Positions 2,210-34,600 of a DNA stretch of 64,000 nt are shown here, piece by piece. The notes under the pieces are model-generated. The model was not told where the DNA came from. It did not search any database and saw only the letters and a list, made by a program, of their open reading frames with translations. The position numbers were made by a program, and so were the translations under genes. How positions within the stretch are numbered: position 1 is the stretch's first letter; each line of letters starts with the position of its first letter. The stretch spans positions 124,001 to 188,000 of the forward strand of contig JAIQFB010000005.1 of the NCBI GenBank assembly GCA_020073485.1. The letters are read 5' to 3'. Source of the stretch: Terriglobia bacterium. Lineage in GTDB: Bacteria > Acidobacteriota > Terriglobia > Acidiferrales > UBA7541.

Positions 2210-2213
2210 GCCG

Positions 2214-2384: not shown

Positions 2385-2471
2385 GGTTTCGTCCCTCCCG
2401 CTTTTGCGCGCGGCGAATATCGGAGTCATCGCCGGCGCCGCGTCGGCCGGTTTCCGGCCACCGCGCTGCTT

Positions 2472-5265: not shown

Positions 5266-5274
5266 GTTCCCTCC

Positions 5275-9370: not shown

Positions 9371-9935
9371 CCCGCTCGCTCTTGATCTAACACCTCAGGT
9401 CTAACCTCCTCGATAGAAGCCCAAGTGCGTTATCGAAACTTGGTCTCGTTCTTGAATGATCGATCCCTATGTTTGGAAAGACATTTGGCCCTAATTTTCA
9501 TCTGTCATATGTCGATCAGGAGATTGTCAGATAGATGTCAGGTATTTTCAGTTGACACCCAATTCCTCAGGCATGACACTGCCACAACGGGATTTGTGTT
9601 AGATCGGGCGTTTAACTCGAAATAACGTGCGCTTGTATTTTTATGAGCAATATCGCCGCATAGGGTGTTCGGCGGGCTGAACACTGTGAATGCAAAACCA
9701 TTTTATGCCATCAGTCCACAGGTTCGGGACAATCCCCGGAGCGCACGAGTGATACCGAAAGCGTAATTGGAATTATTGGTAAGTATTGCCGTGGGTGGTG
9801 TTGCCGGACATGAATGTAGCGTATCGGGCCATTTAGGGCAATTCAGTGTCATTTAGATGGTTTCAGGGGTGAAAGGTCAAGTTGTTGCGTACTTGAACGT
9901 CTGGGGTGTTTACAAGAAAATTGGAGGATATCGAA
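9371..9935. other. Intergenic leader of TonB receptor, no gene seen
   Basis: About 565 bases, more AT-rich than the flanking genes. A 66-codon ORF at 9425-9625 has no ribosome-binding site or recognisable family. A strong GGAGG lies at the right end, before the receptor ATG. No convincing promoter or structured RNA was recognised. Confidence 0.5.
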
Positions 9936-17148: not shown

Positions 17149-17331
17149 TTACATGCCAATTTTCTTGCTGAGCTGGGGAGTCATGCCACCCAATTTCTCG
17201 AACCGCTCAGCGATCCGCTTCATGATCTTCTGGTCCGCGGCGGTTTCGCCAGATGGCAGAAAGCGATACCAGCGTGCGAGTTGCTCTTTGCCGGCCTTCT
17301 CGACTTCTTGGATTGTCGGGAATCCCTTCAC
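17149..17331 (-). CDS. Small conserved-looking protein at end of PLD/SNF2 operon
   Basis: This 60-residue, mostly helical protein has an ordered, non-random composition: LARWYRFLPSGETAADQKI, then IAERFEKLGGMTPQLSKKIG. The RWYRFLPS and GGMTPxLSK blocks resemble small hypothetical proteins I associate with mobile elements, but no function is known to me. Its ATG overlaps the stop of the 209-residue gene as ATGA, which argues strongly that it is translated. It is the last gene of the minus-strand operon and sits next to the island edge. A regulator or immunity-like partner of the operon is possible but unsupported. Confidence 0.6.
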   Translation of the reverse strand: MKGFPTIQEVEKAGKEQLARWYRFLPSGETAADQKIMKRIAERFEKLGGMTPQLSKKIGM

Positions 17332-17957
17332 TGGAGCACCTTGGTTTGGGGGGCGAGAAAAATTACAGCGTTTCGGGCTTCAGGCCTAATGGTCAAGTCG
17401 CAAAATTCTCCTGGAACCTTTGATAGGACGCCTGCATTGCGTGATTTTTCCCGCCACACATCGAAGTCCTTTTTAAGACTGGCGATATTGGCTTGAAAGG
17501 CAAGGTGTCCGAGATAATCCAGTCCCTCCAACACAGCCACAAGCGGACTGTCGGGCTTCTCTTTCCCTTTGCACCCGAATACGACGAGCGAACCATCCAA
17601 CCGCAAGCCGATGAGATCCGCACATCGCCGTCTGTGACCGCCCTGATTCGGTACATTGTACGAAATAAGCAAAACGTCCTCATTGCCAACCTGGAGGCAT
17701 CCGTTCCCACATTGATGGAGCTCTCGGTAGAGCCGCTGCACCAAGACGACCTCAAGATGTTGGCCTCTGTTGTTCTCGTTCCGGTAAGCGTGCCGATCCC
17801 GGTCTTGGAACAATTTGCCGACGTAGGGTTTTCGCTCCTTCCGGACTCTCGCCAATTCGGCTTCAATCACGAACCGCAACAGTTTCGGCCACACCTTATG
17901 TCGGCCCGGAACTTTCCACAGGTGCTCAAACATTTTTCGAAAGCCGGAATCGCTCAT
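17328..17957 (-). CDS. PD-(D/E)XK nuclease-like protein with altered catalytic motif
   Basis: This 209-residue protein has a central CADLIGLRLDGSLVVFGCKG block followed by a helix (VLEGLDYLGHLAF). It reproduces the PD-(D/E)XK core in which an Asp is followed about 15 residues later by a strand ending E-x-K. Here the usual Glu is Gly (VVFGCKG), so a key metal ligand appears lost while the Lys is kept. This could be a DNA-binding pseudo-nuclease, or another acidic residue may substitute. The ATG overlaps the SNF2 gene stop and the stop overlaps the 60-residue gene start. A nuclease-like helper of the helicase is the simplest reading. Confidence 0.6.
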   Translation of the reverse strand: MSDSGFRKMFEHLWKVPGRHKVWPKLLRFVIEAELARVRKERKPYVGKLFQDRDRHAYRNENNRGQHLEVVLVQRLYRELHQCGNGCLQVGNEDVLLISYNVPNQGGHRRRCADLIGLRLDGSLVVFGCKGKEKPDSPLVAVLEGLDYLGHLAFQANIASLKKDFDVWREKSRNAGVLSKVPGEFCDLTIRPEARNAVIFLAPQTKVLQ

Positions 17958-20587
17958 TTTTGGACCCTTGGTTCTAGCCGTAGTGGTTTGAATCGAGGCA
18001 GGCCCTCAACAACAGCTTCTTCGTGGCTGCGTTCCAATGCATCTTGATGCTTGGACCCAAGCAATCGCTCAGATAACTGTGCTCGTAGGTTAAGCCTGCT
18101 CAGGATTCGCTCATCGTATGTATATGGCCATATCAAATAATGGATCCTAATTCTCTTTAGGGCTGACGCGCGAGCGATCCTGAGCTTTTCAGCTGCCTGT
18201 CGAAAACGTGGGCGGTCGATTCTACCCGTCTTTTGCTCTGCCTCATGCGGCGTCCATGCCGGAGTGTAGTGAAGAACGTCCCAGCAATATGTGTGTAGGT
18301 CTACTCCGACTGTGCAAACATTCGTGAGAATCAGGATGAAGGGGTTACCTGCTGAACGAAATTTGTCAGCAACGAAATCTCGGGTTCCCGATTCTTCACC
18401 CGTCTGGACTGCGACCTCCAAGGGATTGCGATGGGATAACCCTTCCGTTTGTCGAAGGAGTCTTTTAAGAACTCGTTCAGGGGAATGGACGAAACTCTCA
18501 ATCGTGTCTTTCCACTCCTGATGGCGCTCAATCAGTTTTGCAACTTTCTTCGCCATCGAAGCCAGTAAGGGTGATGGCCCCTGTTGACCGCTCCCAAACA
18601 CTGAGACTAGAGGCTTCATAAGTGGGGTGAGTCGGGCCAGAGACTTCCTTGCAGCTTCTTTGGCCTGAGGTGAAAGATCGAGCGAATCCAGATCGAGAAG
18701 TGCAATGCTTGGAGTCAAATTGATCTTACCGTGCCTTTTCTGCAATTGCTTTTCGAGTGACAAAATGCTTTCGCAACCGATCTCTTCTAGAACCCTCCCT
18801 CGAAACTCCGGTAGCCTACGCAGTACTTGCCGATATTGATGTAGCCTCCAGTCGACATTGGAGCCTGCAAGCGTTTCTCTGAAGTGCCTAAGTTTTTCGC
18901 GTCGATTCCGTCCCTTGTGTGCGTTCACACATGCAGCTAACAACAGTGTCCTGTTCGATCTCGTCAGCTGTTCAATTGTCCATCCTTGGCGGCTAAGAAT
19001 GTCTTTCAGGCCAGGGAGGGGGTCGGGCAAACGCCCATGTCTGAATAAATCCTTGTTGCGTTGTGCGATCTTCTTGCACGAATCAAGCATAAGCCGACGA
19101 AGCCGACGCAAAAGATGCCGCCCTGCCGAATCTTTGCTGCCGGCCCTTGGCTTGAGTTCCGAAGCGGTCTTCACATGATGGACATAAATGAGGAGTTTGA
19201 AACGAGGTGCACTACCAATTGTTCTTTTAAGCCAAGATGATTCTGCCTCAGCATAGTAAGTGTCTATCCAATTAAGGAGGGACGAGATTTTTGGATGGGC
19301 AGTTTTTCTCTCTGCTTGCTTCTTAGCTGGGTCAGATTCCGTAATTGCCGTCCATGCAACGTACCGACGTGCATTATCGCCCGAGCCCAATCTTGACCTA
19401 GCAGCCTGCCCTAAGAACCACGCAAGACTTTCCGACGCATCACGTGCTCTGGAAAGTTCCGTTTGGAGCGCCGCTAACAAAGTATCCATTCGACTGATCG
19501 GGAATGAAGTGTGCTCAAGGCCAGGTTGGCGCAAAGCAAAAACGTCGCGATCATCATGCCCGCCTGGCGCAAAACGATACGAGCGCGGCCGGTGACTTAT
19601 GGTGCGAACAATCAATTCGGGAAGGAGCGATTCCAGGTTCTGCTTATATTTTCCATATTTGCTGAGACGCTCCCGCCTTTCAGTCTCAGACTTTGCCCTC
19701 AGTCCGGCCCGCAGTTCACGAGAGAAACCATCAAGTGCACGCTCTGTTTCATGCGAAAGCAATACATTGCTCTTTGTTCGCGCACGCCAATCCAGGCAAA
19801 GCTGCAGCACCGATCGGGCATCGGATAGGTCGCGAGAGAGAAGTGTCGCAGATAACCCAAGCAGGAAAGGCCGGCGCCTTTGCCACAGGCGAGGACGGTC
19901 GATGACTGTCGACGGACGTAAAAGTCTGCCGTAAATTGTATGCTCGTTCTTTCCACCGAAGATTTCATCCGCAATAACAACATTGACCTTCTGCATCCAC
20001 TGGGTCCAGGCGCGAACTTGTCGCCCCCGTTGCGTATACAAACGCTTGACCCAGGAGGGACTCGTTACCAATATTTCGACGCTTGCGCTAGTGTGTCGTC
20101 GCTGAGGTCCCAGCCTCCGGAATTTCGCCCGATCGTCATCAAGTGCTTCCGCAAGGCGCCTGATGTCACGCCGAAATCTGAGGTGATAGACCACAATATC
20201 TGATTGCTTTCTATGACTTAACCGCTCTAGGTAAATATCAGTATAGGAGCCCTTCCCGGGAACTTGGGCCAGCGTTGAAATTCTGCACTCTTCTGGGGAA
20301 TTACCGACCAATTTCTGAAGCCAGGAGTGGTTCAACTCACTCGGGCCTGCCAATATTAGAATCCGAAAGCACTGCTTATGAGGATGCTGTGAACGCCAAA
20401 GGCCAAATGCAAGGCTCAACGATATGTAGGATTTCCCAGCCCCTACTTCGTCTGCGATAAGGTAGCTTCCTGATCGTCGCCACTTCCGCCATACAAAGCG
20501 TGCCGTTCGATTTTGGGCTTTGGCTAGAGCCGCGGGCCGCAACACTCGAGAATGAATGGGTATCGGACCGGCGCCATGCCGCTTCAC
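17954..20587 (-). CDS. SNF2-family helicase/translocase of uncharacterised defence-type operon
   Basis: This 877-residue protein has a Walker A near residues 45-53 (IADEVGAGKS), typical of SNF2-type DEGLGKT motifs. Motif II is VVIADEIFGGKNEH, with Asp-Glu kept in a DEIF variant. The C-terminal motor lobe shows LTNVCTVGVDLH, DVLHYTPAWTPHEAEQ and TGRIDRPRF (motifs V and VI). A long helical insertion of about 300 residues separates the lobes, as in bacterial SNF2 proteins of defence loci. Both ends overlap neighbours by 4 bases. SNF2 translocases in DISARM (DrmD) and other systems move along DNA, but the DISARM markers (DUF1998 proteins) are absent. The system is therefore not assignable to a named type from sequence alone. 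Confidence 0.82.
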   Translation of the reverse strand: MKRHGAGPIPIHSRVLRPAALAKAQNRTARFVWRKWRRSGSYLIADEVGAGKSYISLSLAFGLWRSQHPHKQCFRILILAGPSELNHSWLQKLVGNSPEECRISTLAQVPGKGSYTDIYLERLSHRKQSDIVVYHLRFRRDIRRLAEALDDDRAKFRRLGPQRRHTSASVEILVTSPSWVKRLYTQRGRQVRAWTQWMQKVNVVIADEIFGGKNEHTIYGRLLRPSTVIDRPRLWQRRRPFLLGLSATLLSRDLSDARSVLQLCLDWRARTKSNVLLSHETERALDGFSRELRAGLRAKSETERRERLSKYGKYKQNLESLLPELIVRTISHRPRSYRFAPGGHDDRDVFALRQPGLEHTSFPISRMDTLLAALQTELSRARDASESLAWFLGQAARSRLGSGDNARRYVAWTAITESDPAKKQAERKTAHPKISSLLNWIDTYYAEAESSWLKRTIGSAPRFKLLIYVHHVKTASELKPRAGSKDSAGRHLLRRLRRLMLDSCKKIAQRNKDLFRHGRLPDPLPGLKDILSRQGWTIEQLTRSNRTLLLAACVNAHKGRNRREKLRHFRETLAGSNVDWRLHQYRQVLRRLPEFRGRVLEEIGCESILSLEKQLQKRHGKINLTPSIALLDLDSLDLSPQAKEAARKSLARLTPLMKPLVSVFGSGQQGPSPLLASMAKKVAKLIERHQEWKDTIESFVHSPERVLKRLLRQTEGLSHRNPLEVAVQTGEESGTRDFVADKFRSAGNPFILILTNVCTVGVDLHTYCWDVLHYTPAWTPHEAEQKTGRIDRPRFRQAAEKLRIARASALKRIRIHYLIWPYTYDERILSRLNLRAQLSERLLGSKHQDALERSHEEAVVEGLPRFKPLRLEPRVQK

Positions 20588-22410
20588 TTAGGCATCTCCT
20601 TCATCGCCCCGCTTAGGGCGTCTAACAATAATATCTGTGCGGGGTCTTGTGCTTGCAATCGAAAAGCGCGGACCCTCTTGCGCAGTACCGTCAATTCTTG
20701 TCCGTCTGCTTTTGCTAGCGTCCTCGCAAACTGGACTCCTTGTGGTTCTCGGTCGAAATCTGGATCATCACTCAAGGAATCAGGCACCATCGGTGGTTCG
20801 ATAACATCTTCCTCCTCTCCCGAAATCTCATAATCCGATTCTTCGGAAGTACTCCTCTTAGGGAGAGGATCGACAATAGTCTTCCCCAAACCCAATAGGT
20901 TTTCGTTACTTGGCTCGAAGGGTATGCCTGTTGTTAAATCTCGTAAGGCGAAGTCGGGATCTGCAACCTCAACAGCGGACTCAATTGATTCGCCATCAGC
21001 AAAATCGAGTGCCACGCGCAGACGTTCGGGGAATCGGTTGACTGCCTCCTTAAGATGAATTTCTACGAGACCATTCAAGAAGTTCGGGGTAGTCCAGTTC
21101 CGGGAGTTCTCAAACGTCTCGATTATGCTTCGTGATTGCAACGGTAACTTCGTGTGGCGTGGATCGAATGCCGCCAAGACCCTCAATCGGATGGGCTCCT
21201 CTTTAGAGGAATACGAGACGGTAAGTTTATACGGACTGGCAGTTTCATCGAAAGCTGCCCAATAGATCCATCGCTCCACTCCTTTGAGTTCGCTCTCAGT
21301 TTCACCTTGATCAGTCGCCCATTTTTCAAGTTTGGCGCTGGAAACGGGAACGACCTCCACGGAGTCGTCCAGAAGCTGAGGGAGCCCACTGCTCGTGATC
21401 TCATGAAATATTGTTTCCGTATTCCGACTTTTGCACCACGCAGCAGCTGTAAAATTTGCAGATCCAAGGAGACGACTGACGCTCCCATTCTGGCTTTCGA
21501 GCTCGATGACCTTTGCGTGAACTTGTTCCGGAAGTTGGAAACCATTCCCAGGCTTCTTTCTGATGGACTTTATCAATAGCTCTCCTTTTTGGGCTACCTG
21601 AAGTCCGATGAGGTTTCGGTAATCGAGCGGCTTTGCGAAAACCTGTGAACCATCCACCCACACCTCCACTCTATCAACTCCACCTTTTGCGGAATTCAAC
21701 ACAGACAGAAGCTCCTCCATGAGTCCAACAGAACCCTCATCGAAGTATGGTGACATTATCCGAAGCACCCGTGGCTTGTCCTTAATTCCCATTACAAGTG
21801 ACTTGAACGCCGTGTTTCTGTTCGATGTTTTGTCGTCGCCAAAAAGCCATGGGATGGACACCGAACGCTTTCTGTACCGGTGCATTCCTTTCAGCCAACT
21901 CTCAACAACACCAGCCCCCACGTTTGGCATTCCCCCTAAAAATTCCAGAAAGGAAGCACACGCAGACAGGCTTTCCCCGGCATCCCAAGTCCAAAGTTCT
22001 AGGTTTCGCTGCCAGCCACCCCAGGTCAGATTTGAGGAGCCTAAGCCTATGACGATATCGGAAGCCCCACGAACGCCGGGTTTCTCATATTCTGCGACAA
22101 TGAACTTGTTGTGAAATAGGAACCGGTTTGCGGGCAGGTATCTGATCCGAAGATTCACCTTCCATTTCGCCCATTCGTCTAACGAATAGAGATCACCAGA
22201 AGCCTGCGACCCTCCAGCGTAGGCGTCATCATCAAATCGCGTTGCGAAAACTAGCACGTCCGTGTTGGCAAGAGAGCTCCGACGGATAAACCCCAGAACT
22301 TCATTATGAAACCAGCGGAAGTTGAATCGGTAAGTGAAGAACAAGAGTCTGCGAAGCCGGCGCCGCCGGGTCCAGAGGAACGCGAGGCTCGATGCTGTTG
22401 GGTCGCTCAT
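20584..22410 (-). CDS. Phospholipase D-superfamily nuclease
   Basis: From an ATG that forms TAATG with the upstream stop, the protein is 608 residues. Two PLD half-sites are present. The first is FHNKFIVAE with His near residue 100, followed by GLGSSNLTWGG. The second is QVHAKVIELE with His near 298, followed by LLGSANFTAAAW. These HxK and G-S-x-N elements form one active site in the fold. The C-terminal 200 residues are acidic (SEESDYEISGEEEDVIE) and of unknown role. PLD-fold nucleases partner with helicases in several anti-phage systems, such as DISARM and Mokosh. Here the partner is the overlapping SNF2 gene, and the active site appears complete. Confidence 0.83.
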   Translation of the reverse strand: MSDPTASSLAFLWTRRRRLRRLLFFTYRFNFRWFHNEVLGFIRRSSLANTDVLVFATRFDDDAYAGGSQASGDLYSLDEWAKWKVNLRIRYLPANRFLFHNKFIVAEYEKPGVRGASDIVIGLGSSNLTWGGWQRNLELWTWDAGESLSACASFLEFLGGMPNVGAGVVESWLKGMHRYRKRSVSIPWLFGDDKTSNRNTAFKSLVMGIKDKPRVLRIMSPYFDEGSVGLMEELLSVLNSAKGGVDRVEVWVDGSQVFAKPLDYRNLIGLQVAQKGELLIKSIRKKPGNGFQLPEQVHAKVIELESQNGSVSRLLGSANFTAAAWCKSRNTETIFHEITSSGLPQLLDDSVEVVPVSSAKLEKWATDQGETESELKGVERWIYWAAFDETASPYKLTVSYSSKEEPIRLRVLAAFDPRHTKLPLQSRSIIETFENSRNWTTPNFLNGLVEIHLKEAVNRFPERLRVALDFADGESIESAVEVADPDFALRDLTTGIPFEPSNENLLGLGKTIVDPLPKRSTSEESDYEISGEEEDVIEPPMVPDSLSDDPDFDREPQGVQFARTLAKADGQELTVLRKRVRAFRLQAQDPAQILLLDALSGAMKEMPK

Positions 22411-23630
22411 TAGGGTTGTCGCTCCAAGTATTTTGCGCTCTCGCAAAGAGTCTGCGAGGCCTGGAATCGGTAGCCAAAGAGACCCCAGCGGTAGTTGTTG
22501 AATGCCGCCGAAAGTGCAGGATAGCTTGGACCTGGTTTCCGGTCTTTAAAGCTCCACGCACAGACAGCATGGCGCTTATTTTGAAGTTCACAGTAGGCCA
22601 CATGGAGTTCAGCCAAAGCTTCCTGCAGTTCAGCAGACCCTCTGGCGCCAAAAGTTTCAATGTCCTGTTTATTATGCAGCTTCATATATCCATTTATATT
22701 CTTGTCGAGTCCAACAAGATTGATAGCATTCTTTTGCCATCTTGCAAGGCGGGCAGAAATAAGATCATCATGAAGTTGTAGACACACGGAAACCAACTTC
22801 CGCCAGTCTGACTGGGTTTGGTTGGGGTACCTGAGTATTAGTGTCAAAAAGTCTTCGAGTGGTTGTGTGCTTCGGCTTCTTCGAACATCAGCGCGCCCAG
22901 TTTCACGTAGTAGAAACGCCGAAGCTTCGAACAGCGTCTGCCATACGGTGAAGAAAAACTCGAGCTCCCGAACGAGGCATATGGAATCCGGCACATTGGC
23001 TGGGGGCTTCATGCCAGTTAACCACCACCTTCTCCAGGATCCCGTTTCGCCCCGAAACAAGTGTTGAATATCAGTTGGCTGAATAGCGAAGACTTTGCCT
23101 CGGTTCCGGCTGTACCATCTAAAGTTACTGATTCGCCGCCTTCGAATTCTTGGTTCATCTTTGGCCAGACCGAGACGGTCCTGAAAAATCATTTTCCGAT
23201 AGCCATCCACGCTCTTCGGACGCTTTTGGTCGAGCAATCCAAAATGATCAACGAGTGATCCATATCGCTGCCAGTAGGTCATCTGCTGAGTCAACTCGCT
23301 AGAGGATTTCTGGATGTTTTCACGAGAAAGAACCTTACTAAGTTCGCGGGCAATTGTGGGATCAGTTGCCGGTCGCTGAAACTCATAGCGCCTTCGTGGC
23401 GAATTGGCAACGTCCATTCGAATCGCTGTCTCATGTATCGCTTTGACATCGTGCAGGTCGCGCGTCAGCACCGTGATGCCGGGGAATAAATAGTCGCCCC
23501 AGCGAGTCGCCAAAGACATGAATCCCAGGACCGAGCGGATGCTAGTCTCTTGCTTGAAAGAGCGAACTATAAACGCAGAATGCTTGGATGAGGTTGACTT
23601 TCTTGGCAACAAGATTACGCTCCGCACCAA
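22410..23630 (-). CDS. Unknown protein, first gene of PLD/SNF2 operon (possibly DUF6361-like)
   Basis: This 406-residue, largely helical protein has no enzymatic motif I can name. Near the N-terminus, SVLGFMSLATRWGDYLFPGI followed by TVLT resembles the opening of DUF6361-type proteins (a G-x-S ... FPG-x-x-x-LT block), which I recall beside PLD and helicase genes. That link is from memory and should be tested. The middle is rich in Arg and aromatic residues (RRRRISNFRWYSRNRGK), consistent with nucleic acid contact. The start is uncertain: 23630 is a TTG with GTG next to it and no clear ribosome-binding site. Its stop overlaps the PLD start. Confidence 0.6.
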   Translation of the reverse strand: MVRSVILLPRKSTSSKHSAFIVRSFKQETSIRSVLGFMSLATRWGDYLFPGITVLTRDLHDVKAIHETAIRMDVANSPRRRYEFQRPATDPTIARELSKVLSRENIQKSSSELTQQMTYWQRYGSLVDHFGLLDQKRPKSVDGYRKMIFQDRLGLAKDEPRIRRRRISNFRWYSRNRGKVFAIQPTDIQHLFRGETGSWRRWWLTGMKPPANVPDSICLVRELEFFFTVWQTLFEASAFLLRETGRADVRRSRSTQPLEDFLTLILRYPNQTQSDWRKLVSVCLQLHDDLISARLARWQKNAINLVGLDKNINGYMKLHNKQDIETFGARGSAELQEALAELHVAYCELQNKRHAVCAWSFKDRKPGPSYPALSAAFNNYRWGLFGYRFQASQTLCESAKYLERQP

Positions 23631-23956: not shown

Positions 23957-26900
23957 TTATTGTTCAAAAAGATCCTTTGGTCGTATTTCAAGGACAACGT
24001 CCAAATCAAAATTGCCCTTTTCAAGCAATCGACCGAACGGATCCCGTATGATATCGCTGGCCCAGCTCGCCTCAGGACCGGCGTCAAGGAATCCGACGAG
24101 GTAATAAGTGTTCCGGTGAACTCCTGCCGATTTCAATTCGTTCGGACTCACGACGATTCGACCGTCCTCGCTGAATGCCTTGACTTCAACGTGGACAAGT
24201 TCGGTTCCTTTCTGACACTCAAAATCATACCCGCAGTTATCCTTTGTTGTGTCCTTAACGAACACGAACCCTTCCCAGCCTTTTTTACTGAGTGTGCGAC
24301 GCATGAATTCTTCCTCGCCACGTCGCCCTCTATCTTTCTGAGAAACTGACACTCTGAGAGATTGTTGAGGTTCATGGATACGCAACGGTTGCGACAAACT
24401 ACGGGGGTCGATGCTTTTCTTCAAATTACCGAACAACTCGGCTACGCGACGGCCGAGAGTTACGCTTCGCTGATCCAGCGTGTCTTCTGCTTGTGCGACG
24501 CCAACTGCCGGAGCGACGACGAATGTCGCCGCTGGTGGCGGTGGAGTTTCTACCGCGAGTTCAGTCGATTCTTCTCGAGCTTCATCAAGGGCACTAACTG
24601 ACACATTGAGGCTCTCAAGAAGAAATCTGCTCATCTCTTCGGGATCCCCGTGACAAGCTTGAAATCGGGAAACGACCCTCGGAAACGCGTCCCGGTAGTC
24701 ATCGCGCGTCCCGTCGCAATAAATAGGAGCGAGCACCTCCCCGAGTGCATCACCATCGAGCTCGAACAACGACACGTCGGGCTTACCGATAACGTACATT
24801 GTGTAGTGCGTCTCCTTGATTGCACCTGGCAGCTCCACAACGCGACGTTGCAGATGAAACTTCTGACATTTAAATGACGCAATATGTTCAGGGGATGAGC
24901 GCAAAGTGAATGTCACTTCGAGCTCACTTGCTAGTCGGACCCCAAATCGATCACGAAGTCTCCGCCTGACCAGATCTGCATATCCTTGCTCTTCAGTTTT
25001 TGCTATCACAATTGCCAGCAAGTAAGGTCCAAGCTCTTTGACAATGGTCGCGTAGAGAAATGGCGCCTCGGCTGCGTTCGCCGCTCCGCTTACTTCTTCG
25101 TCGAGCGTCTGACCCGGAATGAGACGAGCGATCCCAAGTTTCTCAAATAGGCCAGGATAAGGGCGGTCCGTATCTAGAAAGGCAAAGCTACTGCGGAATG
25201 CCCTTTCGGCAGCTGAACCGGGTTCCGCGTAGAACAAAGGACGTTTGCGGAATGCCAGCTGTCCATCAAGGTTAGCGGCCAGGCACAGATCAATAGGCAA
25301 AGAGATCGTTGTGCTGTATTGGTTTAGCGTTCTATACGATTCTTGAATCGCTCCACGCAACAAGCGCCAACGGCTTCGCGACTGGAGCCACGCGTCACGA
25401 ATACCTTCGAGTTGAAACTGACGGCCCACAATTGTCAGGAACCGGACCAAAGTCGAAGCAGATGCGCCATCCTCCAATGGTTCAACGCCAAGACGTGTGA
25501 GTAGTACATAGTCGTTCAGATTGTCCGCAACAACGTACGGAATCAATAGATCACCTAGTTCTTCACTTGCGGTCCCGCGTGAGATAAAGCGCCGATCTCT
25601 TTGGCGGACAAAGCATTCAACAGCATTCGCTGGGCCGAGAGTTGAGGGAAGCCATCGTAGCTCCTGCAGCTGTAGCCGGAAAAATGATCCACATGGCGCG
25701 TTCATTCCGCCACCGCCTGACAGTCGTCTAAATATTTGGTCTGGTTCTAGGTCCTGCGGAGATGGAAGATTGTGAATGAGACTCCAGAGCCGGGCCTGCC
25801 ATGATTCATCTCCCGCATTGCTCTCTTGCTCGGATAAAGCACAACAGCGTTCTAGCGCCTCAACGATTGTGAGTTGCTGAATAGATCGTCCATACGTGTC
25901 ATTGAACGGCGCGGATTCCACAAAACGCTTCCACAATGCCGACTTGTTAACCTCGTCGATAACTGCGAGATTCTGATCGTGTTGCCGCTCCCCCGTAAAT
26001 CGTGTGCGTGCGTCAATGCTCAGTGGAGTCGTAAACGTGACGTCACGTCCGCCCCCAATGAAGCGTACGAATCTCAATACCTTTGGCGTTCCAGTGACAC
26101 CGGCTCGCTGCAGAATGTTGAGCCAGAAGGACGGCGAAATGTTTTGCTCGTTCATTAGATCCGTGAGGAACTTATCCGATACACGACGCAGCTCTGGCAC
26201 GCCCATGAGCACTTTTCCTGCTCCCTCATAACCATCCGGCCAATAGCTGAGAAATGCCGGCGCAATTGAGGACTGGTCAACAGAAATCGGCACAGGAAGT
26301 CGACCTATTTCCTCCCAAAACTCGTCGGATTCAATGCCTCGACCAAGCGCCAGAATTCGCTGTAGGAAACGCCATACGCTTAGTAGGTCCCTGTAGGCTA
26401 AAGGCTCAGAATACATTGACTGCACCGATCCTCTAATAGCTCGTGGGACGATGTCGGACGATTCAAACCTAGCCACCCGGCACGCAGTTATCAACCAATC
26501 GCGGATTGTTTGATAAAATGGGTGATGTATGTCAACGACTTCTGCATTGAGCAGCACAAACACGGATTGGAAGCAACGCGGAACCTCGCACTTCGCGGCT
26601 TCCCCGGTTGGGGTGAAGCAAACAATTCTGCTGCCTTCCTGAGGTACCGCAATGACTTCTCCGCTAGATGTCAGCAACAGACGTCTCCCAACGAGAACTT
26701 GATGACCCCACCGTGAGTAATCTTCGTGTGTTGCTAAATAGCTGTATAACTCAGTCCACCATAGTGTGCTCGGGTGTTCGGAAGACTTCTCGATCAAATC
26801 AAGAATCGCCCGCGACGGTAAAGCTTCCATTCCTATAAATTGTAGGAATTGGCGGGCATCAGAGCTATCGACTGTAGGCTGAAGAAAAGCCTCCTTGTTT

Positions 26901-28369
26901 GCGACACTCTTCAATGCGGCGCCAAAATGTTCGGTCCAGAAACCAACGTCGTCCAAGCATGTAGGCAATGCGACTTCCTGAGGGGAGCGAGGTCCTGAGG
27001 TTGAGGGGACAAAAGCGTCTGAACGCTTCTGAATGGTTCGTTTGACTATAGTTCGGAACCTGACGCCAACATCCTGGTTCGTTAGCGATGGCCGCAACGA
27101 CTCGAACACTCGTCTGGGGTCGTATCGTCGCAGCAACTGGTTCAGAAAATCTCCAGCGAAGAGCCGCCCTGCGACGTCCATCAACCACTCGTTATACGAG
27201 CCAGGCATCAGACGCGTTCTGTCGGGTTTAACGTAAAAATCGCCGTGAATTGTTATCCCGAACCCGGTTGGCTCGTCCGTCGGGAAATAGACATGAAATC
27301 TGGCATTGGCATCGAACGCCGGCACACCATCTCGAAGGAGACAGGACAAACGTACAGTGGCGTAGGTCATTTGCCGTACGGCGCGTGGGGTCTCGGGATC
27401 CGTCTTAACTTGTGGCGGAATCAAAGCTGAGCCTGAGAGCTGAAAGTATGTAGCTCGGCTGACCCGGGAGTTGGCAAGAATGTCGACTGAAATTTGATCT
27501 CCACTCGCTGCATTCCGATCGCCCGCAAGAGTAGCCTGTGCCACCAACTTATTTTGATCAAACAGGCTAACCGTTCTCAGTGATTTCAAAAATGGGAGCA
27601 GACTCGATATCTCACGCTCGACGAAACTAGTTAGGGTGGCCACACCTTCTGAGTTCGAAATGATAGGCTTGACATCCAGAGAGTCCACGACGCGGCGGTC
27701 TGCATCGGGATCTGACGCGGGCAGCCAAAACATGGTCGTGAGCCCTGAACCAATCTCGTTACGGACTGCGCGCTCGAATACAGAGACCCCGCCTCCCAGT
27801 GAGCTCTTCTTCAACTCCCCCGGTATCGCCATTACCGGGCAGGTTGACTGACCGTGCTTCGACCAGCTGCGAACCTCGGCTTCAAGTTCGGGATTCCGTC
27901 GGATGGTCTCATTAACATGTCCTCGATTAAGTCCCCACCCAAACCGGAATCCGAACCAGTCCTTGTCCAATTTGACGACGGCAGGTGATGGCGTCAGATC
28001 AAGAACAGATCGAAACCCAAGTCCCTTGTGACCAATGCACTGATTAGGATCCTTATCACTCCATCCATCAGCTAAACTTCGAAAATTGGCCACGCTGAAC
28101 CACGCACCATCGTGGAGAAAACAAAGGCCATCCGTAACTAATATAAACACGGCCTGAGTTGCCTTGACGTCATCGGCATTCTGGAGAAGTTCATACGGTG
28201 CTCGGCCGCGGTACAATTCGCGAACGTCGCGTTCGCGACCGGCTTTTTCCCGCAAGTACTTGAGACCGGTTAGGTCGAACGACGGTCGGCTCCATTTGTC
28301 GCGCGTATTCTTAAAGCTGGCCCTGTTGAGGGAGGCGGTATTCGACACGATCGAATCAGGAATCTCCAC
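23957..28369 (-). CDS. GHKL (Hsp90/sacsin-like) ATPase fused to DUF3883-type nuclease
   Basis: The N-terminal ATPase shows the GHKL N-box (YELLQNADDV, about residues 58-67) and a G2-type loop (IGHKGLGFRSVL), as in sacsin-like and Hsp90-like domains. About 1100 residues of helical and mixed sequence follow. The last 150 residues form a PD-(D/E)XK DUF3883/NO VEIN-type domain: RRGEEEFMRRTL, then CGYDFECQ and VHVEVKAFSED with Asp, Glu and Lys in place. I chose GTG at 28369 because GGAGG lies 5 bases before it, giving 1470 residues; the frame is open 14 codons further. Proteins joining GHKL ATPases to DUF3883 nucleases recur in defence islands, but I know of no settled mechanism. It is divergent from the HTH gene. 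Confidence 0.82.
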   Translation of the reverse strand: MEIPDSIVSNTASLNRASFKNTRDKWSRPSFDLTGLKYLREKAGRERDVRELYRGRAPYELLQNADDVKATQAVFILVTDGLCFLHDGAWFSVANFRSLADGWSDKDPNQCIGHKGLGFRSVLDLTPSPAVVKLDKDWFGFRFGWGLNRGHVNETIRRNPELEAEVRSWSKHGQSTCPVMAIPGELKKSSLGGGVSVFERAVRNEIGSGLTTMFWLPASDPDADRRVVDSLDVKPIISNSEGVATLTSFVEREISSLLPFLKSLRTVSLFDQNKLVAQATLAGDRNAASGDQISVDILANSRVSRATYFQLSGSALIPPQVKTDPETPRAVRQMTYATVRLSCLLRDGVPAFDANARFHVYFPTDEPTGFGITIHGDFYVKPDRTRLMPGSYNEWLMDVAGRLFAGDFLNQLLRRYDPRRVFESLRPSLTNQDVGVRFRTIVKRTIQKRSDAFVPSTSGPRSPQEVALPTCLDDVGFWTEHFGAALKSVANKEAFLQPTVDSSDARQFLQFIGMEALPSRAILDLIEKSSEHPSTLWWTELYSYLATHEDYSRWGHQVLVGRRLLLTSSGEVIAVPQEGSRIVCFTPTGEAAKCEVPRCFQSVFVLLNAEVVDIHHPFYQTIRDWLITACRVARFESSDIVPRAIRGSVQSMYSEPLAYRDLLSVWRFLQRILALGRGIESDEFWEEIGRLPVPISVDQSSIAPAFLSYWPDGYEGAGKVLMGVPELRRVSDKFLTDLMNEQNISPSFWLNILQRAGVTGTPKVLRFVRFIGGGRDVTFTTPLSIDARTRFTGERQHDQNLAVIDEVNKSALWKRFVESAPFNDTYGRSIQQLTIVEALERCCALSEQESNAGDESWQARLWSLIHNLPSPQDLEPDQIFRRLSGGGGMNAPCGSFFRLQLQELRWLPSTLGPANAVECFVRQRDRRFISRGTASEELGDLLIPYVVADNLNDYVLLTRLGVEPLEDGASASTLVRFLTIVGRQFQLEGIRDAWLQSRSRWRLLRGAIQESYRTLNQYSTTISLPIDLCLAANLDGQLAFRKRPLFYAEPGSAAERAFRSSFAFLDTDRPYPGLFEKLGIARLIPGQTLDEEVSGAANAAEAPFLYATIVKELGPYLLAIVIAKTEEQGYADLVRRRLRDRFGVRLASELEVTFTLRSSPEHIASFKCQKFHLQRRVVELPGAIKETHYTMYVIGKPDVSLFELDGDALGEVLAPIYCDGTRDDYRDAFPRVVSRFQACHGDPEEMSRFLLESLNVSVSALDEAREESTELAVETPPPPAATFVVAPAVGVAQAEDTLDQRSVTLGRRVAELFGNLKKSIDPRSLSQPLRIHEPQQSLRVSVSQKDRGRRGEEEFMRRTLSKKGWEGFVFVKDTTKDNCGYDFECQKGTELVHVEVKAFSEDGRIVVSPNELKSAGVHRNTYYLVGFLDAGPEASWASDIIRDPFGRLLEKGNFDLDVVLEIRPKDLFEQ

Positions 28370-28545
28370 ATATCCTCCACAGCGGTATCGACCACGATTC
28401 TTGGGAGGCACGATTGTTCAGCGCCATTCTAGCCATTGCCGCAGCGGGCCTCCCAGGCCTGGCTGATTCCTTCGACGTACAAGGTATTTTGTAAGATCTG
28501 GAAACAGCCTATCGCTGACTATACGCGGAGATGTAGATATCGATT

Positions 28546-28996: not shown

Positions 28997-31642
28997 ATGC
29001 TTCGCCAGACAATTGTTGTGGGCAGTAGCACCGCGTGGCATCAAGAGCGCTTCGATCAGACCCTCTGCAACGCAACCGGAATTCAGATTCTTACAGTTCG
29101 CCGACTAGTGGAACGCTTGGCCGGCGGGTTCCTTAGAGCCGCAAACCTTGACGAGCTCCAGGTTGCCTGCGCCCAGGCTCTCGATTTGGAAAAATCAAAG
29201 CTTCATCACTTGTCCCCGTTGGTAGAACTTCCAGGTACAGCCAGCGCAGTCTCCGGCACTCTTGAAAAGGCGTGGGCTTCTGGTCTGGACCTATCAGCGT
29301 GGAGAGAAGAGCCGCGATGTGTGGATTTGAATATTCTGGAAGCCTCGATCATTTCGCATTTGCCAAACGGCGCCCTCGTAGCGAGTGACTTGCTAGAAGC
29401 TGCCCTGGCACGCATCAATTTCGCGCCTTCTCTCATCGGGTCCATTCGCGTTAAGGGCGTTTACGCGCTTGCACCATGTTGGCAACCGCTCTTTGCGGCT
29501 CTAGCTGAGCGAATTCCAGTCGTGTGGGAAACCACCGGTGAGTGTGACAGCTGGGTTGCCAACACGCAGATCGATACAATCCGGCTCCCCATGAGTGAGT
29601 CATTCCGCAGTGCCGTATCTTGCGCAAATCCAACACATGAAATGACCGAAGCTTTGCGCTGGGCGCGAGAGCTAATAGTTGCCGGTCGTGCCGAAGCTCA
29701 AGAAATTGCAATCGCAGCAGCCTCGGTGGAGGGGTTCGATGACTACTTGCGTGTTATGTGCGATGAATCGCAGCTCCCCGTCTACTTCACAAATGGTCGC
29801 GCCGCACTGAGTGGATTCCTTGGCCAACAAGCGGCCGCGTTAGCTGAGCTGTTGCTTCACGGAGTTAGCCAGGACCGCATCTTGCGGTCAATCCGTCTCA
29901 TTCGATCTGAAAATAAGGAGCTACGCGCACTACCAGACGGCTGGGAAAGATTGATCAATGCTGACGCCCCCCTTTTGAAAGTAGAACACTGGAGGCACGA
30001 GGTCGCCCGCATCAATGAAGAACATAAAATCGATCTGCGTCCGACCCTGCTCGCATTTGTTGAAGATGTTGCTCGGGAATCAAGCGCTGCAGCGACCATC
30101 GGCGAACGCTGGCTCAGCTCCGGTGCTAAGGCCATCTGGCGGAGGGCACTTGCGCAAGGTCCTCCAAGCGCGCTTGCCACGATGCTCAATCATGTCCGGG
30201 TAGCCGACGAAGGAGATCCTGCTGCAAGCATTCTTTGGGGTACCGCAGCTGTTATCTGTACGGTTCGGCGCAAGTTTGTCCGCCTCGTAGGCTTGAGCAG
30301 CCGAGGCTGGCCCCGTACTCTCCAGGATGACCCACTGTTGCCCGAACACATCCTCGGGAGGCGGCTTAGTGCGCACTCTGTTCCTGAACTCGACCGACTG
30401 TACTTTGATGTTTTGACTGGTCAGGCAACAGAAATTGTGTTCAGTCGCAGCCGCCGTGACAAAGAGGGCCGCGTCCTAGGAATTAGCCCTCTTTTTCCGA
30501 GAACTATTGAAGAGGTTGCGCTGAGGCAGTCCCGCGTACCGCCGCACGCATTCAGCCGCGCAGACCGTCTGCTCGCTCGTCCGGCCGAGTTTGCACGATC
30601 GGAATTAGCCCGTTCAGTGAGGCAATGCGTAGAAGACCGCAACCGCGAAGAGATTACTGCCCACGACGGCCTTGTTCGCCCAGACCACCCCGTAGTCGCA
30701 GCCGCGCTGGGCCGCGTGCAATCTGCAACTTCGCTCCGGCTCTTGTTACGGGATCCACTCGGTTTTGTATGGAAATATGCGCTGCGGTGGAAGCAACCAG
30801 ATGACACAACCGAGGAGGAGCCGATCCTTTTTGACAACCTCGCGAAAGGTAGATTTATTCACGAGCTCCTTGAACAAACGGTGATTCAACTTGAACGGGA
30901 TGGTGGATTCTCAACTGCTTCACGAGAACAGATTGCTGCAGCTATTAGCCGAGCGTGCCAAAATACAGCTGAACGATGGGAACTCGACGTGCCGATCCCA
31001 CCGCGTGCGATTTGGGAACGCGAAAAGAATCAGTCACGGGAAATTGCTTTCAAGGCTTTGACATACCCGCACGAAGCCCACGACCACTTGCACAGCTTTG
31101 TCGAAGTGCCCTTTGGGGGACTCGGCGACGCCGCGTCAGGATCTGAATTACCTTGGGATCCTACGCGGGTGGTTGAGCTTTCCAATTTACACATCCGAAT
31201 TACAGGCAGAGTTGACCGTATTGACCTAAGCGAAGACCGACAGTTCGCGCGCGTAATTGACTACAAGACCGTCGGGAAGACTCCGAAAGAGGACCCCTAT
31301 TTGAATGGTGGCAAGGAGCTCCAACGCGCAATTTACACATGTGTCGTACGCAGCTTACTGCCCGAGGTTAGAGAACTTGAGGCCGGGCTTTTGTATCCCG
31401 AAACAAGCTCCTTATTCCAGGCGACAAACATCGAGCAACTCATTAGCGACACGGCCACTTACGTCACCGCGGCGGCAGATCTTTTGCGGCGCGGTTGCGC
31501 TTTGCCAGGAATCGGTGCGGAAGACGACTACAACGAAATGCGCTTCGCATTGCCTAGTAATGCCTCGGCATTTTACATCCCGCGGAAAATACTAAACCGT
31601 AATGAACGAATGCAAACGCTGCTGCCGCTTTGGGGTTCATGA
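28997..31642 (+). CDS. AddB-like subunit with PD-(D/E)XK nuclease domain
   Basis: This 881-residue protein has an N-terminal region resembling the inactive helicase half of AddB (IQILTVRRLVERLAGGFLRA) but no Walker A lysine. The C-terminal third carries a RecB-type nuclease domain: FIHELLEQTVIQLE (the His motif), then GRVDRIDL, VIDYKTVGK near residue 755 and ELQRAIYTCV, matching motifs H, D, D-x-K and Q. In AddAB/RexAB enzymes this subunit cuts one DNA strand. The stop overlaps the start of the UvrD-like gene, as with addB-addA. An island location beside BREX argues for a defence role rather than the chromosomal repair copy, but that is inference. Confidence 0.78.
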   Translation: MLRQTIVVGSSTAWHQERFDQTLCNATGIQILTVRRLVERLAGGFLRAANLDELQVACAQALDLEKSKLHHLSPLVELPGTASAVSGTLEKAWASGLDLSAWREEPRCVDLNILEASIISHLPNGALVASDLLEAALARINFAPSLIGSIRVKGVYALAPCWQPLFAALAERIPVVWETTGECDSWVANTQIDTIRLPMSESFRSAVSCANPTHEMTEALRWARELIVAGRAEAQEIAIAAASVEGFDDYLRVMCDESQLPVYFTNGRAALSGFLGQQAAALAELLLHGVSQDRILRSIRLIRSENKELRALPDGWERLINADAPLLKVEHWRHEVARINEEHKIDLRPTLLAFVEDVARESSAAATIGERWLSSGAKAIWRRALAQGPPSALATMLNHVRVADEGDPAASILWGTAAVICTVRRKFVRLVGLSSRGWPRTLQDDPLLPEHILGRRLSAHSVPELDRLYFDVLTGQATEIVFSRSRRDKEGRVLGISPLFPRTIEEVALRQSRVPPHAFSRADRLLARPAEFARSELARSVRQCVEDRNREEITAHDGLVRPDHPVVAAALGRVQSATSLRLLLRDPLGFVWKYALRWKQPDDTTEEEPILFDNLAKGRFIHELLEQTVIQLERDGGFSTASREQIAAAISRACQNTAERWELDVPIPPRAIWEREKNQSREIAFKALTYPHEAHDHLHSFVEVPFGGLGDAASGSELPWDPTRVVELSNLHIRITGRVDRIDLSEDRQFARVIDYKTVGKTPKEDPYLNGGKELQRAIYTCVVRSLLPEVRELEAGLLYPETSSLFQATNIEQLISDTATYVTAAADLLRRGCALPGIGAEDDYNEMRFALPSNASAFYIPRKILNRNERMQTLLPLWGS

Positions 31643-34600
31643 TGCCGACGATTATCGACCAATCCGAGCGCCTACGTGTCTTAACTGATTTGGATTCGAC
31701 GCTTCTGGTCGAAGCTGGCGCTGGAACTGGGAAAACAGCTTTGATGGCGGGCCGCGTTGCAATGCTACTAGCTGCGGGCGTGCCAACGCGAGAAATCGCT
31801 GCTATCACCTTCACGGAAGCCGCAGCCAGCGAGCTGTTCGCACGCATCTTCGACTATTCCAGCGAACTTCGCGAAGGAAGAATCCCTCCCGAACTCTCAG
31901 TCTCTTTTCCAGAAGGTCCGACAAGGCATCAGACCGAGAACCTTTTACGTGCCAGCGATTCGTTGGACGAGTTGATATGCTCTACGATCCACAGCTTCTG
32001 CCAACAACTGACAAAACCCTATCCCGTCGAGGCCAATCTCGATCCTGGTGCCGTTATTATGGACGAAGTGCAAGCAGATCTAGCCTATGACGTGCTTTTC
32101 GAGGAGTGGCTACGCTCAGAGCTTAGTCAGTCCGAGGATGATAGACCTGTTGCTGTTCTACTCGTAGAAAGGGGCGTAAAAGGGCGCAGGTTAATCGAAC
32201 AAATTGTTGCAGCGCAACAGAACCGTCGCGGCGCACAAAGTCCATCATCTCGTCTTTCACAACATCTTACAAATGACTTCCGCTCAGCCGTCGCTGCTTT
32301 TGTAGAGATATACGGCCGCGCAACGCGCCAAGGTCTAATCGAAAACACTACCTCCGTTTATGCAGATGGGTTTCAAGTGCTCGCCGAATTTTACGCAACT
32401 GATTTTCAACCCGACACATCCTTCCGCCAATTGTGGCGACTTACTGAGCCGCCGGACATTGCGGCGTTCAAGAAAGATGGTTACCACTTTCGAAAGTATC
32501 AATGTAAAGGAGCGTGGCAAGAGGCGGCACGGGCGGCACACCAATCAAGAACCCTGGGCGAACAATTCAACAATGAGCTCTCTGGGGCATATGACCGGGT
32601 CGCCCAGACATTAACATCCCTTTTGGATGCTTTAGGCGAAACAGTTCTCGCGCAACTCACCACAGCTCTCGAAGGCTTTACCGCCACCTATGGCAGGCAC
32701 AAGCGGTCATCCGCGGTATTGGATTTCGACGATTTACTCTACAACGCTCGCGATTTGCTGCGCAGATCACCAGAAGTACGTGCAGCACTGTCAGGACGAT
32801 ATCGCCACATTCTGGTCGACGAATTTCAGGATACCGACCCAGTTCAGGCAGAAATCCTTTTTCTCCTTTGCGGAGAGGGTCCCAACGATGCCCCCTGGCC
32901 GGAGATGCGTTTGCGCCCTGGCCAATTGTTTCTTGTAGGAGACCCGAAACAGTCCATTTATCGTTTCCGCCGCGCGGACATCGCTTGCTATGAACGCGTC
33001 AGGCAGGCCTTTCTTGAACAATTCCCCGGAAGCAAAATCCAGATCACGGCCAACTTTCGATCCCAGGAGCCTATCCTGACTTTCGTAAATGATCGATTCT
33101 CTGCACCACTCAACGAAATCGGATTTGCGCCCCTTTCGTGTACCCTGGAGGGGCCACCGCCTTCAGATCCGCGCGTTGTAAGGCTTGGGATCAACTACCC
33201 TCCGGATATGGGAGCGCCGGATCGCCGTCGTGCCGAGGCTACGCAAGTTGCCCAGTTCTGTCGCCATCTATTGGACAACTTTCAAGTCCGCACGAAAAAC
33301 GGTCTTCAGACATGCAAACCCAAACATATTGCATTGCTCGCACCCAGTAGCACCGAGCTGTGGGTCTATGAACAGGCATTAGAAGAAATCGGCATTCCCC
33401 TCTCTACGCAGGCCGGAAAAGGACTTTTTCGCCGGCAGGAAATTCAAGACCTCATCGCGATCACACGCGTACTCTCGAATCGTCGCGACACGTTTGCGCT
33501 AGGCGCGCTTTTGCGCGGGCCCCTAATTGGCCTGAGTGAGGAAGAACTGCTGGATATTGTCGCTGCGCTGCCGCGACGCCCGGAATCCGGCGATTATGTA
33601 AGTATCTCTGTGACCACGGATCCGGAGTCTATTCCGCATCCGGTGGCACGCGAATCGTTAAAAATACTCAACTCTCTCTCTAAACGCGCTTACAACACCA
33701 CGCCCTTTGACATCCTTAACTCTGCAGTCGAAGGCCTCAATATCCGTCCATTGCTACTTCAACGTCATCCCCGGTACGCCGAGCGTACTTTGGCGAATGT
33801 TGATCTATTTCTCGATCTCGCTCGCCAGTATAGCGTGCGTGGTCTACGTGCATTCTCTCGCGACATGATGCGTCGCTGGGAGGACGCGGAACGACAAATT
33901 GAGGGCCGTACCGATGCAGGGGTCGAAGCTCTCCAGATCATCACTGTTCACGCAGCGAAAGGTTTGGAGTGGCCCGTAGTCATCCCAATAAACATGATTA
34001 CCGAGACTCACGGCGCAGAAGGGGTGTTATTCGACGCTCAAAGAAATACGCTTCTTTGTCAGTTTGAGAAGATAAGACCTGCTCCGTATGTCGACTTGAA
34101 GGATGCAGAGACGGAGCAGCTCCGCAAAGAACGATTGCGCATGTGGTATGTCACATGTACGCGAGCTCGGGACATGCTGGTAATTCCTCACCACACAAAC
34201 GCTCAAGGTGCTGGGTCATGGTTCGGGGAAATCGATCTCCGATTAGCGGAGCTGCAAGCTGCTGTTTTTGAGAATGTCCCACCATATGCTTCAGCACCTC
34301 ACGATGCGTCAAATGACCAAACCCTGGAACTTTTTCAAACGGAAACAGAAGCCATGTCTCGCCGTACTCGGCGCATTCATTGGACCACTCCAAGTCTTGC
34401 AGAAGAGCAGGAAGGGCCGAGCTTACCTAGCGACGAGAGTCTGATCGATGGCGTCGTATCCAGCCCTGTTCTTGTAGCCGGCAGTGCTACGCGTGGCCGG
34501 GTTTTACACAAGCTCATGGAAGAAATTCTCTTGGGCGCTGTCACAGATGATCGTTTGGCCTTAACCACGTGTGCTGCTTCCCTTATCGCACAGCTTGGTC

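What the first reader, a model, noticed from the sequence alone, without database searches (positions are those of the whole stretch)
17149..23630. Uncharacterised five-gene operon: unknown protein, PLD nuclease, SNF2 helicase, nuclease-like protein, 60-aa protein
Every junction is an ATGA or TAATG overlap, so the five products are likely made in fixed ratio as one machine. Two PLD half-sites and a full set of SNF2 motifs are intact. The operon sits next to BREX but lacks the DUF1998 proteins of DISARM and the HamA of Hachiman, and I cannot match it to a named system. It is a strong candidate for an undescribed anti-phage system.
Basis: partly seen in the sequence, partly recalled or inferred. 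Interest (0 to 1): 0.75.

Follow-up and report, generated by a model that had tools for sequence, protein, structure and literature searches.

The report
Divergent PLD-SNF2 nuclease-helicase defence operon
A bacterial five-gene operon, close to other antiviral genes, encodes a probable DNA-cutting enzyme and a DNA motor distantly related to those of known antiviral systems, together with three unfamiliar proteins, one of which belongs to a family otherwise seen here only in viruses of bacteria.

Summary
The five genes are real and tightly coupled. Junctions are one TAATG, one ATGA and two GTGA, not all ATGA/TAATG. "No named match" is half right: PLD (g2) and SNF2 (g3) match PADLOC's candidate system PDC-M27 (B, C) and Azaca (ZacB, ZacC), over parts of the profiles, and score 98 and 131 bits against wider B and C profiles built here. 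The order leading gene-PLD-SNF2 is also shared: 32 of 66 loci, fetched for PLD or SNF2 matches, carry A-B-C. But g1 matches no A profile significantly, and g4 and g5 have no counterpart in the fetched loci. g2 and g3 sit on very long branches. I file it under no named system: a deep new variant of a known kind. The surprise is g5, which belongs to a small-protein family of giant Caulobacter/Brevundimonas phages and other viral contigs, plus one prophage-like stretch in the same phylum. g4 is only tentatively nuclease-like, without the ExK glutamate. Most likely a DNA-targeting helicase-nuclease defence complex; defence is inferred, not shown.

The parts
22410..23612 (-). g1: 400 aa (from TTG 23612), unknown, predicted mostly helical; occupies the position of the A gene of PDC-M27
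   Evidence: ORF (406 aa from TTG 23630, the form used in searches); GGAG before 23612; no PADLOC hit at E <= 1 and no NCBIfam hit, only chance-level Pfam (E 0.092) and PHROG (E 0.076, 0.088) hits; non-significant but collinear M27A profile match; helical model, pLDDT 52
20584..22410 (-). g2: 608 aa PLD/HKD-superfamily nuclease with two half-sites (HNK..SSNLT, HAK..SANFT)
   Evidence: Pfam PLDc_2 3.2e-8; PDC-M27B 1.5e-12, ZacB 4.1e-12; 98.3 bits to the B profile built here; motifs. Scans used the 620-aa ORF from 22446
17954..20587 (-). g3: 877 aa SNF2/SF2 helicase, GTG start behind AAGGAG
   Evidence: Pfam Helicase_C 4.8e-7; PDC-M27C 2.6e-19, ZacC 9e-13; 131.2 bits to the C profile built here; motifs
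17328..17957 (-). g4: 209 aa, possible degenerate PD-(D/E)XK-like protein (D114, then F-G-C-K instead of ExK), no relatives found
   Evidence: ORF and overlaps; no relatives; model pLDDT 37.5; motif reading by eye
17149..17331 (-). g5: 60 aa, member of a small phage protein family (most members end in GG(M/W)TPE(I/L)SKxIGW or similar)
   Evidence: 40-50% identity to proteins in 11 phage records, 27 viral contigs, a prophage-like stretch; alignment
23957..28411 (-). context, not counted as part: Tiamat (TmtA)-like sacsin-ATPase/NOV_C protein, about 0.33 kb upstream of g1
   Evidence: TmtA 1.5e-43; NOV_C 3.8e-8, SACS below cut-off; P_loop_sacsin above cut-off
28997..34983 (+). context: PD-(D/E)XK protein (881 aa) + UvrD-like helicase (1117 aa), possibly an AddBA-like pair
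   Evidence: PDDEXK_1 1.7e-18; GajB/RTasHel-type UvrD hits
35132..52699 (+). context: type 2 BREX (pglW, pglX, brxC/pglY, pglZ, brxD, brxHI)
   Evidence: PADLOC hits

Best explanation
A deep-branching variant of the PLD-SNF2 helicase-nuclease defence modules (the kind that includes PDC-M27 and Azaca). Proposed mechanism: the SNF2 protein g3 loads on and moves along invading double-stranded DNA and is the ATP-driven sensor/motor. The PLD protein g2, with two half-sites forming one active site, cuts that DNA when the motor stalls or meets a non-self feature. The helical g1, at the A position, is the adaptor or lock that keeps g2 off host DNA and contributes recognition. g4 and g5 are lineage-specific accessories: g4 perhaps a DNA-binding, catalytically weakened PD-(D/E)XK protein, g5 a phage-family protein taken into the operon as a regulator or phage-contact subunit. 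Shown here: gene structure, homology of g2 and g3, the shared order, the phage family of g5. Inferred: that it defends, the DNA target, the complex, and all roles of g1, g4 and g5.
For: g2/g3 homology to M27B/C and ZacB/C; same order with a leading A gene in 32 of 66 loci fetched for PLD or SNF2 matches; both PLD half-sites and SNF2 motifs I, III, VI kept at 20-24% identity to the five relatives aligned; overlapping junctions with ribosome-site-like stretches; island with type 2 BREX, a Tiamat-like gene and a PD-(D/E)XK + UvrD pair; Azaca listed with a PLD-like domain (PMC10952713, table passage) and ZacC listed as SF1/SF2 helicase (PMC12278908, methods passage); HKD nucleases with SF2 helicases discussed as restriction effectors (PMC10853773, PMC12839542, passages).
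Against: No experiment. g1 has no significant match to M27A (hhalign E 0.15 and 0.041; the reversed sequence gave 0.046). The branches are very long (3.2 and 2.8) with placement supports of only 0.51 and 0.48, so kinship with either named system is unresolved. No close relative was found, so conservation of the five-gene set could not be shown. The defence enrichment of homologues' neighbours was inconclusive. Motif II of g3 is unusual (DEIF). The low GC of the operon (about 0.51) is weak evidence of acquisition, since 54-62 kb of the window is as low (0.515-0.525).
Confidence: 0.62

Rival explanations
1. It is simply a fast-evolved PDC-M27 system: g1 is a true but unrecognisable M27A, and g4/g5 are unrelated passengers.
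For: Same order and PLD-SNF2 pair; g2 nearest the M27-proper clade in the B tree (support 0.48); the only hhalign stretch is collinear with the most conserved M27A motif (g1 32-61 vs profile 29-58); the summed N- and C-terminal sub-profile score was reached by 0 of 357 decoys and 1 of 1000 shuffles (a post hoc test).
Against: Whole-profile match not significant; each sub-profile alone is reached by decoys (9 and 4 of 357) and shuffles (34 and 9 of 1000), and the middle part does not match (80 of 357 decoys); modelling g1 with 20 M27A rows gave only pLDDT 52, pTM 0.45; the C tree does not place g3 inside M27.
Confidence: 0.25
2. Five co-transcribed genes but two functional units: a three-gene PLD-SNF2 module (g1-g3) and a separate two-gene unit (g4-g5), for example a toxin-antitoxin-like or phage-derived pair.
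For: No g4 or g5 homologue in the PLD-SNF2 loci fetched; g4 and g5 differ in third-position GC (0.60 and 0.70 against 0.50-0.53 for g1-g3); g5 is of a phage family.
Against: ATGA and GTGA overlaps tie g4 to g3 and g5 to g4; short genes make the GC difference weak.
Confidence: 0.22
3. A decaying or non-defence remnant: a captured operon with repair or plasmid-control function.
For: Motif II reads DEIF instead of DEAH/DEGH; g4 lacks the ExK glutamate (by eye); no close relatives in the genomes sampled.
Against: All five frames intact; both PLD half-sites and SNF2 motifs I, III, VI kept; defence-island setting.
Confidence: 0.1

Closest known systems
PDC-M27 (PADLOC candidate system, A-B-C)
   Same: Leading unknown gene, PLD, SNF2 in that order; g2 hits PDC-M27B (1.5e-12) and g3 PDC-M27C (2.6e-19)
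   Different: g1 not recognised by M27A profiles; g2/g3 match only over parts of the profiles; extra g4 and g5; 14 of the fetched loci carry a small YbjN-like gene after C and 5 have it fused to C
Azaca (ZacA-ZacB-ZacC)
   Same: PLD-like ZacB and SF2 helicase ZacC; g2 4.1e-12, g3 9e-13
   Different: No ZacA match seen; partial profile coverage; the two Azaca-like loci fetched (L076, L080) lie on separate branches from g2 and g3
Alphaproteobacterial PLD-SNF2 loci seen here (L084, L086, L091)
   Same: PLD + SNF2 pair at the end of a tight operon; a UvrD-type helicase gene in the locus (similar to the window's 1117-aa protein, 7.6e-25)
   Different: Their 404-aa gene shows no match to g1, and their first gene (565 aa, cut by the locus edge) none to the window's 881-aa protein, in the tests run
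DISARM (DrmC PLD, DrmD SNF2)
   Same: PLD and SNF2-type helicase
   Different: DrmD 40 bits against cut-off 610, DrmC 15.9 against 133; no DrmB or methylase hit; the DrmA hit of g3 (4e-6) is to the helicase domain only
PbeABCD / CxC-ABC systems
   Same: HKD nuclease with SF2 helicase, plus a small fast-evolving protein proposed as regulator or interactor of viral triggers (PMC10853773, passages)
   Different: PbeA is a fusion; no ABC-ATPase or DndE hit here; g2 to PbeA only E 0.0027

Membership tests
PDC-M27 | PLD protein of the M27B family | tested here: inconclusive
   PDC-M27B 1.5e-12 but best stretch covers only 101-240 of 635 positions; 98.3 bits to the broader B profile
PDC-M27 | SNF2 protein of the M27C family | tested here: inconclusive
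   PDC-M27C 2.6e-19, best stretch 738-845 of 892; a typical member scores E 0 over the full length (L069)
PDC-M27 | Leading gene of the M27A family | tested here: not met
   no PADLOC hit at E <= 1, while ten A proteins of other loci hit M27A (1.1e-10 to 2.3e-204); hhalign E 0.15
PDC-M27 | Order A-PLD-SNF2 in one operon | tested here: met
   compare the 32 A-B-C loci
Azaca | ZacB and ZacC | tested here: inconclusive
   ZacB 4.1e-12, ZacC 9e-13, partial coverage
Azaca | ZacA | tested here: inconclusive
   no ZacA hit for any of the five proteins, but no call showed that the library holds a ZacA model (the gene before ZacB in L076 also had no hit); g1 vs the genes before the Azaca-like PLD genes not significant (the L080 gene is cut by the contig end)
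DISARM | DUF1998 DrmB and methylase; DrmC and DrmD at curated cut-offs | tested here: not met
Hachiman | HamA | tested here: not met
   no HamA hit at E <= 1
BREX-related (BR) systems | DUF499 ATPase + N6-methylase + SNF2 helicase | tested here: not met
   no DUF499 or methylase hit among the five proteins; definition from PMC12839542 section 29
PD-(D/E)XK nuclease (g4) | D...(E/Q)xK catalytic motif in the fold | tested here: inconclusive
   no profile hit above cut-off and no PDB sequence hit, model too poor; by eye D114 and F-G-C-K, no E at the ExK place
Anti-phage defence system | Protection against phage or plasmid | not testable with these tools
   -

The most novel reading that the evidence does not exclude
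The operon has recruited a phage-made small protein (g5) as its trigger or bait: g5 copies a protein that phages use on a host or phage partner, and the PLD-SNF2 complex is released when that partner binds g5. This would be a helicase-nuclease defence that senses phage through a captured phage protein.
Probability: 0.12. Interest if true: 0.78.

Novelty: new variant of a known kind. Interest (0 to 1): 0.42.

Why it matters
It extends the PLD-SNF2 helicase-nuclease kind (Azaca, PDC-M27) to a very divergent lineage that a PADLOC profile scan matches only partially, and suggests that the leading 'A' protein is the fast-evolving part. A phage-family protein built into a defence operon, if functional, would give a direct, testable handle on how such systems sense infection; the paper listings I saw showed no work on Azaca's mechanism.

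Tried and rejected
Close relatives: g1 in its own genome (itself only), in GTDB contigs (0 of 12 candidate stretches confirmed) and plasmids (none at E <= 1); g2 in 101 genomes of relatives, its own included (own only), 399 class genomes (own + 2 weak, 1e-5 and 4.2e-5), plasmids (none), viral contigs (0 of 14 candidate stretches); g3 in 396 phylum genomes (own + 7 at E <= 1e-8) and plasmids (42 records, none covering 80%); g4 in plasmids, phages, viral contigs (none) and 396 genomes (own + 3 weak hits judged chance after alignment); g5 in plasmids (none) and, as a single sequence, in viral contigs (0 of 22 candidate stretches; the alignment A4 then gave 27).

Rejected: g1 as a proven M27A (the sub-profile test was designed after seeing the alignment and is only suggestive). 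g4 as a relative of the YbjN-like gene after M27C (hhalign E 0.029 over 23 columns). g4 as a demonstrated nuclease (pLDDT 37.5). Foldseek of the low-confidence g1 model gave no match under E 0.001. The window's 881-aa protein as a relative of the first gene of the L086-type loci. The neighbour test for defence context: 100 neighbours of the 32 A-B-C loci hit 116 PADLOC families at E <= 1e-20, 58 control ORFs hit 38 (first listed mainly kinase-like PD-T4-6); counts per protein were not given, so I draw no conclusion. The control stretches were incomplete (of 12 asked, two absent and two short; the shortest, L137, was left out of the 58 ORFs). Sequence searches of the PDB with the B and C alignments found nothing at the limits used (0.01 and 1e-5); the A alignment gave only 7 weak hits, best E 0.17.

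Literature: 'PDC-M27' has no paper in the held library (one search); Azaca was searched. Millman 2022, the original Azaca paper, is recalled only and was not seen.
Full report
OBSERVATION. Five minus-strand ORFs fill 17149-23630. Exact junctions are g1/g2 TAATG, g2/g3 GTGA, g3/g4 ATGA, g4/g5 GTGA, so two of four differ from the description. Shine-Dalgarno-like stretches precede g3 (AAGGAG), g4 (AAGGG), g5 (AAGG) and, further away, g2 (GGAG); g1 fits TTG 23612 better than TTG 23630 (the reading of these sites is mine). In 1000 simulated stretches of the same dinucleotide make-up the longest stop-free run was 292 codons, and 55 reached 209. The three long genes are therefore beyond chance, g4 is supported mainly by its overlaps, and g5 by homology. 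The operon is about 51% GC against 58-63% in the first 8 kb of the window, but 54-62 kb is as low, so composition says little.

SURROUNDINGS. About 0.33 kb upstream is a 1484-aa TmtA (Tiamat)-like protein (1.5e-43). Divergent from it are a PD-(D/E)XK protein (PDDEXK_1 1.7e-18) and a UvrD-type helicase, then six type 2 BREX components: PglW, PglX, BrxC/PglY, PglZ, BrxD, BrxHI. This is an inference from equal contig length.

WHAT g2 AND g3 ARE. PADLOC: g2 hits PDC-M27B 1.5e-12 and ZacB 4.1e-12; g3 hits PDC-M27C 2.6e-19 and ZacC 9e-13; g1 and g5 have no hit at E <= 1, g4 only a weak one (PDC-S11, E 0.016). NCBIfam DISARM models are far below cut-off. From 16 loci of phylum genomes, fetched for a weak PLD match, and 50 loci of a GTDB contig scan for the SNF2 alignment, I built A, B and C families at E <= 1e-6. 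A was found in 32, B in 50 and C in 56 of these 66 loci, all three in 32; a few A hits are fragments at contig ends. Because the loci were chosen by PLD or SNF2 matches, the counts are not frequencies in nature. Against these profiles, built without the window's proteins, g2 scores 98.3 bits (5.8e-30) and g3 131.2 bits (4.6e-40) in a test set of 206 sequences; the controls there were 200 shuffles of g1 (best 10.3 bits for B, 2.1 for C), not of g2 or g3. PADLOC gives M27A for all ten A proteins I tested there (1.1e-10 to 2.3e-204), and ZacC for the helicases of L076 and L080 (2.6e-105, 2e-238). Trees put g3 on a branch of length 3.2, joined to M27 plus the L082-type loci with support 0.51 and outside the Azaca-like pair, and g2 on a branch of 2.8 beside the M27-proper clade with support 0.48. 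The residues that matter are kept: H112-x-K with SSNLT, H310-x-K with SANFT (620-aa numbering), GAGKS, SAT, QKTGRIDR. Motif II is DEIF instead of DEAH/DEGH. The five M27C relatives aligned carry a further C-terminal part that g3 lacks; the PADLOC-typical forms in L069, L074, L075 are about as short as g3 (900-917 aa).

WHAT g1 IS. It sits where M27A sits, but the whole-profile test fails: hhalign E 0.15 and 0.041, against 0.046 for the reversed sequence and 0.07-0.51 for eight shuffles, and no significant hmmsearch hit. The single aligned stretch is nevertheless collinear with the strongest M27A motif (g1 32-61 on profile 29-58). The sum of an N-terminal and a C-terminal sub-profile score was reached by 0 of 357 decoys and 1 of 1000 shuffles, but each part alone is reached by some decoys, the middle part does not match, and I designed the test after seeing the alignment. 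A model of g1 with 20 M27A rows is mostly helical, pLDDT 52.3, pTM 0.45, without a significant PDB match. I call it a possible, unproven M27A.

WHAT g4 IS. No homologue found: plasmids, phages, viral contigs, 396 genomes, PDB. By eye it has the run 'CADLIGLRLDGSLVVFGCKGKEK', like the D...ExK core of PD-(D/E)XK nucleases (recalled pattern), but with Gly at the Glu position. The model is too poor to test the fold. 'Nuclease-like' is a lead only, and a catalytically altered version is as likely.

WHAT g5 IS. This was the unexpected result. It matches, over 93-98% of its length at 40-50% identity, hypothetical proteins in 11 phage records (two phages appear twice), all giant Caulobacter and Brevundimonas phages. 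It also matches 27 viral contigs, at least two of which have the lengths of phages already counted, and, in 2 of 297 phylum genomes (its own and G232), one gene in a stretch that I read by eye and recall as a Mu-like prophage. The alignment shows a shared C-terminal motif, GG(M/W)TPE(I/L)SKxIGW or similar. PHROGs gave nothing for g5 and, for six relatives, one weak hit (phrog_16354, E 0.021). No homologue was seen in any PLD-SNF2 locus fetched. In the phages read it lies among small genes of unknown function near peptidyl-tRNA hydrolase and pantetheine-phosphate adenylyltransferase genes, or a nicotinamide phosphoribosyltransferase gene. Its function is unknown.

MECHANISM. The best-supported model is a helicase-nuclease DNA-targeting defence: g3 motor/sensor, g2 cutter, g1 adaptor/lock, g4 and g5 accessory. 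Homology, motifs and order are shown; the rest is inference from this kind of system. Literature seen: Azaca is listed among systems with a PLD-like domain (PMC10952713, passages); ZacC is listed as an SF1/SF2 helicase (PMC12278908, one passage); HKD nuclease plus SF2 helicase is discussed as a restriction effector, with a small fast-evolving partner in PbeABCD proposed as regulator or trigger interactor (PMC10853773, passages); HKD/SNF2 effectors in BREX-related systems (PMC12839542, passages and section 29). No paper on Azaca's mechanism appeared in the listings.

NOVELTY. I file it under no named system: for PDC-M27 the A component was tested and not met, for Azaca the B and C matches are partial and ZacA could not be settled, and DISARM, Hachiman and BR systems lack defining parts. 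It probably works like PDC-M27/Azaca: a new variant of a known kind. The bold reading is the captured phage protein as trigger; nothing here excludes it and nothing but the family match supports it.

CHANGES ON CHECKING. The ZacA test was moved from 'not met' to 'inconclusive', the GC drop was taken out of the evidence, and the nature of the controls was stated.

Noticed in passing
28997-34983: PD-(D/E)XK protein (881 aa) overlapping a UvrD-type helicase (1117 aa); looks like an AddBA-like exonuclease pair placed directly before type 2 BREX.
   Followed up: partly
23957-28411: Tiamat (TmtA)-like 1484-aa protein with sacsin-type ATPase and C-terminal NOV_C domain; no relative in the PLD-SNF2 loci fetched.
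   Followed up: partly
L084, L086, L091 (about 1-10460) and L082: Alphaproteobacterial operon: 563-565-aa protein (cut by the locus edge), 1068-aa UvrD-type helicase, 404-aa unknown, PLD, SNF2. In L091 the PLD and SNF2 give only partial PADLOC matches; may be another undescribed PLD-SNF2 variant.
   Followed up: partly
L022, L026, L055 and others, gene after M27C: 14 of the fetched loci carry a small gene (127-213 aa ORFs) after C that matches one profile, and 5 have it fused to C (L027, L051, L052, L060, L064); the L026 copy passes Pfam YbjN, and the two copies scanned had no PADLOC hit.
   Followed up: partly
L110:2229-6682: The phage g5 homologue lies among several small proteins that share the N-terminal motif GFVSNSSS.
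   Followed up: no
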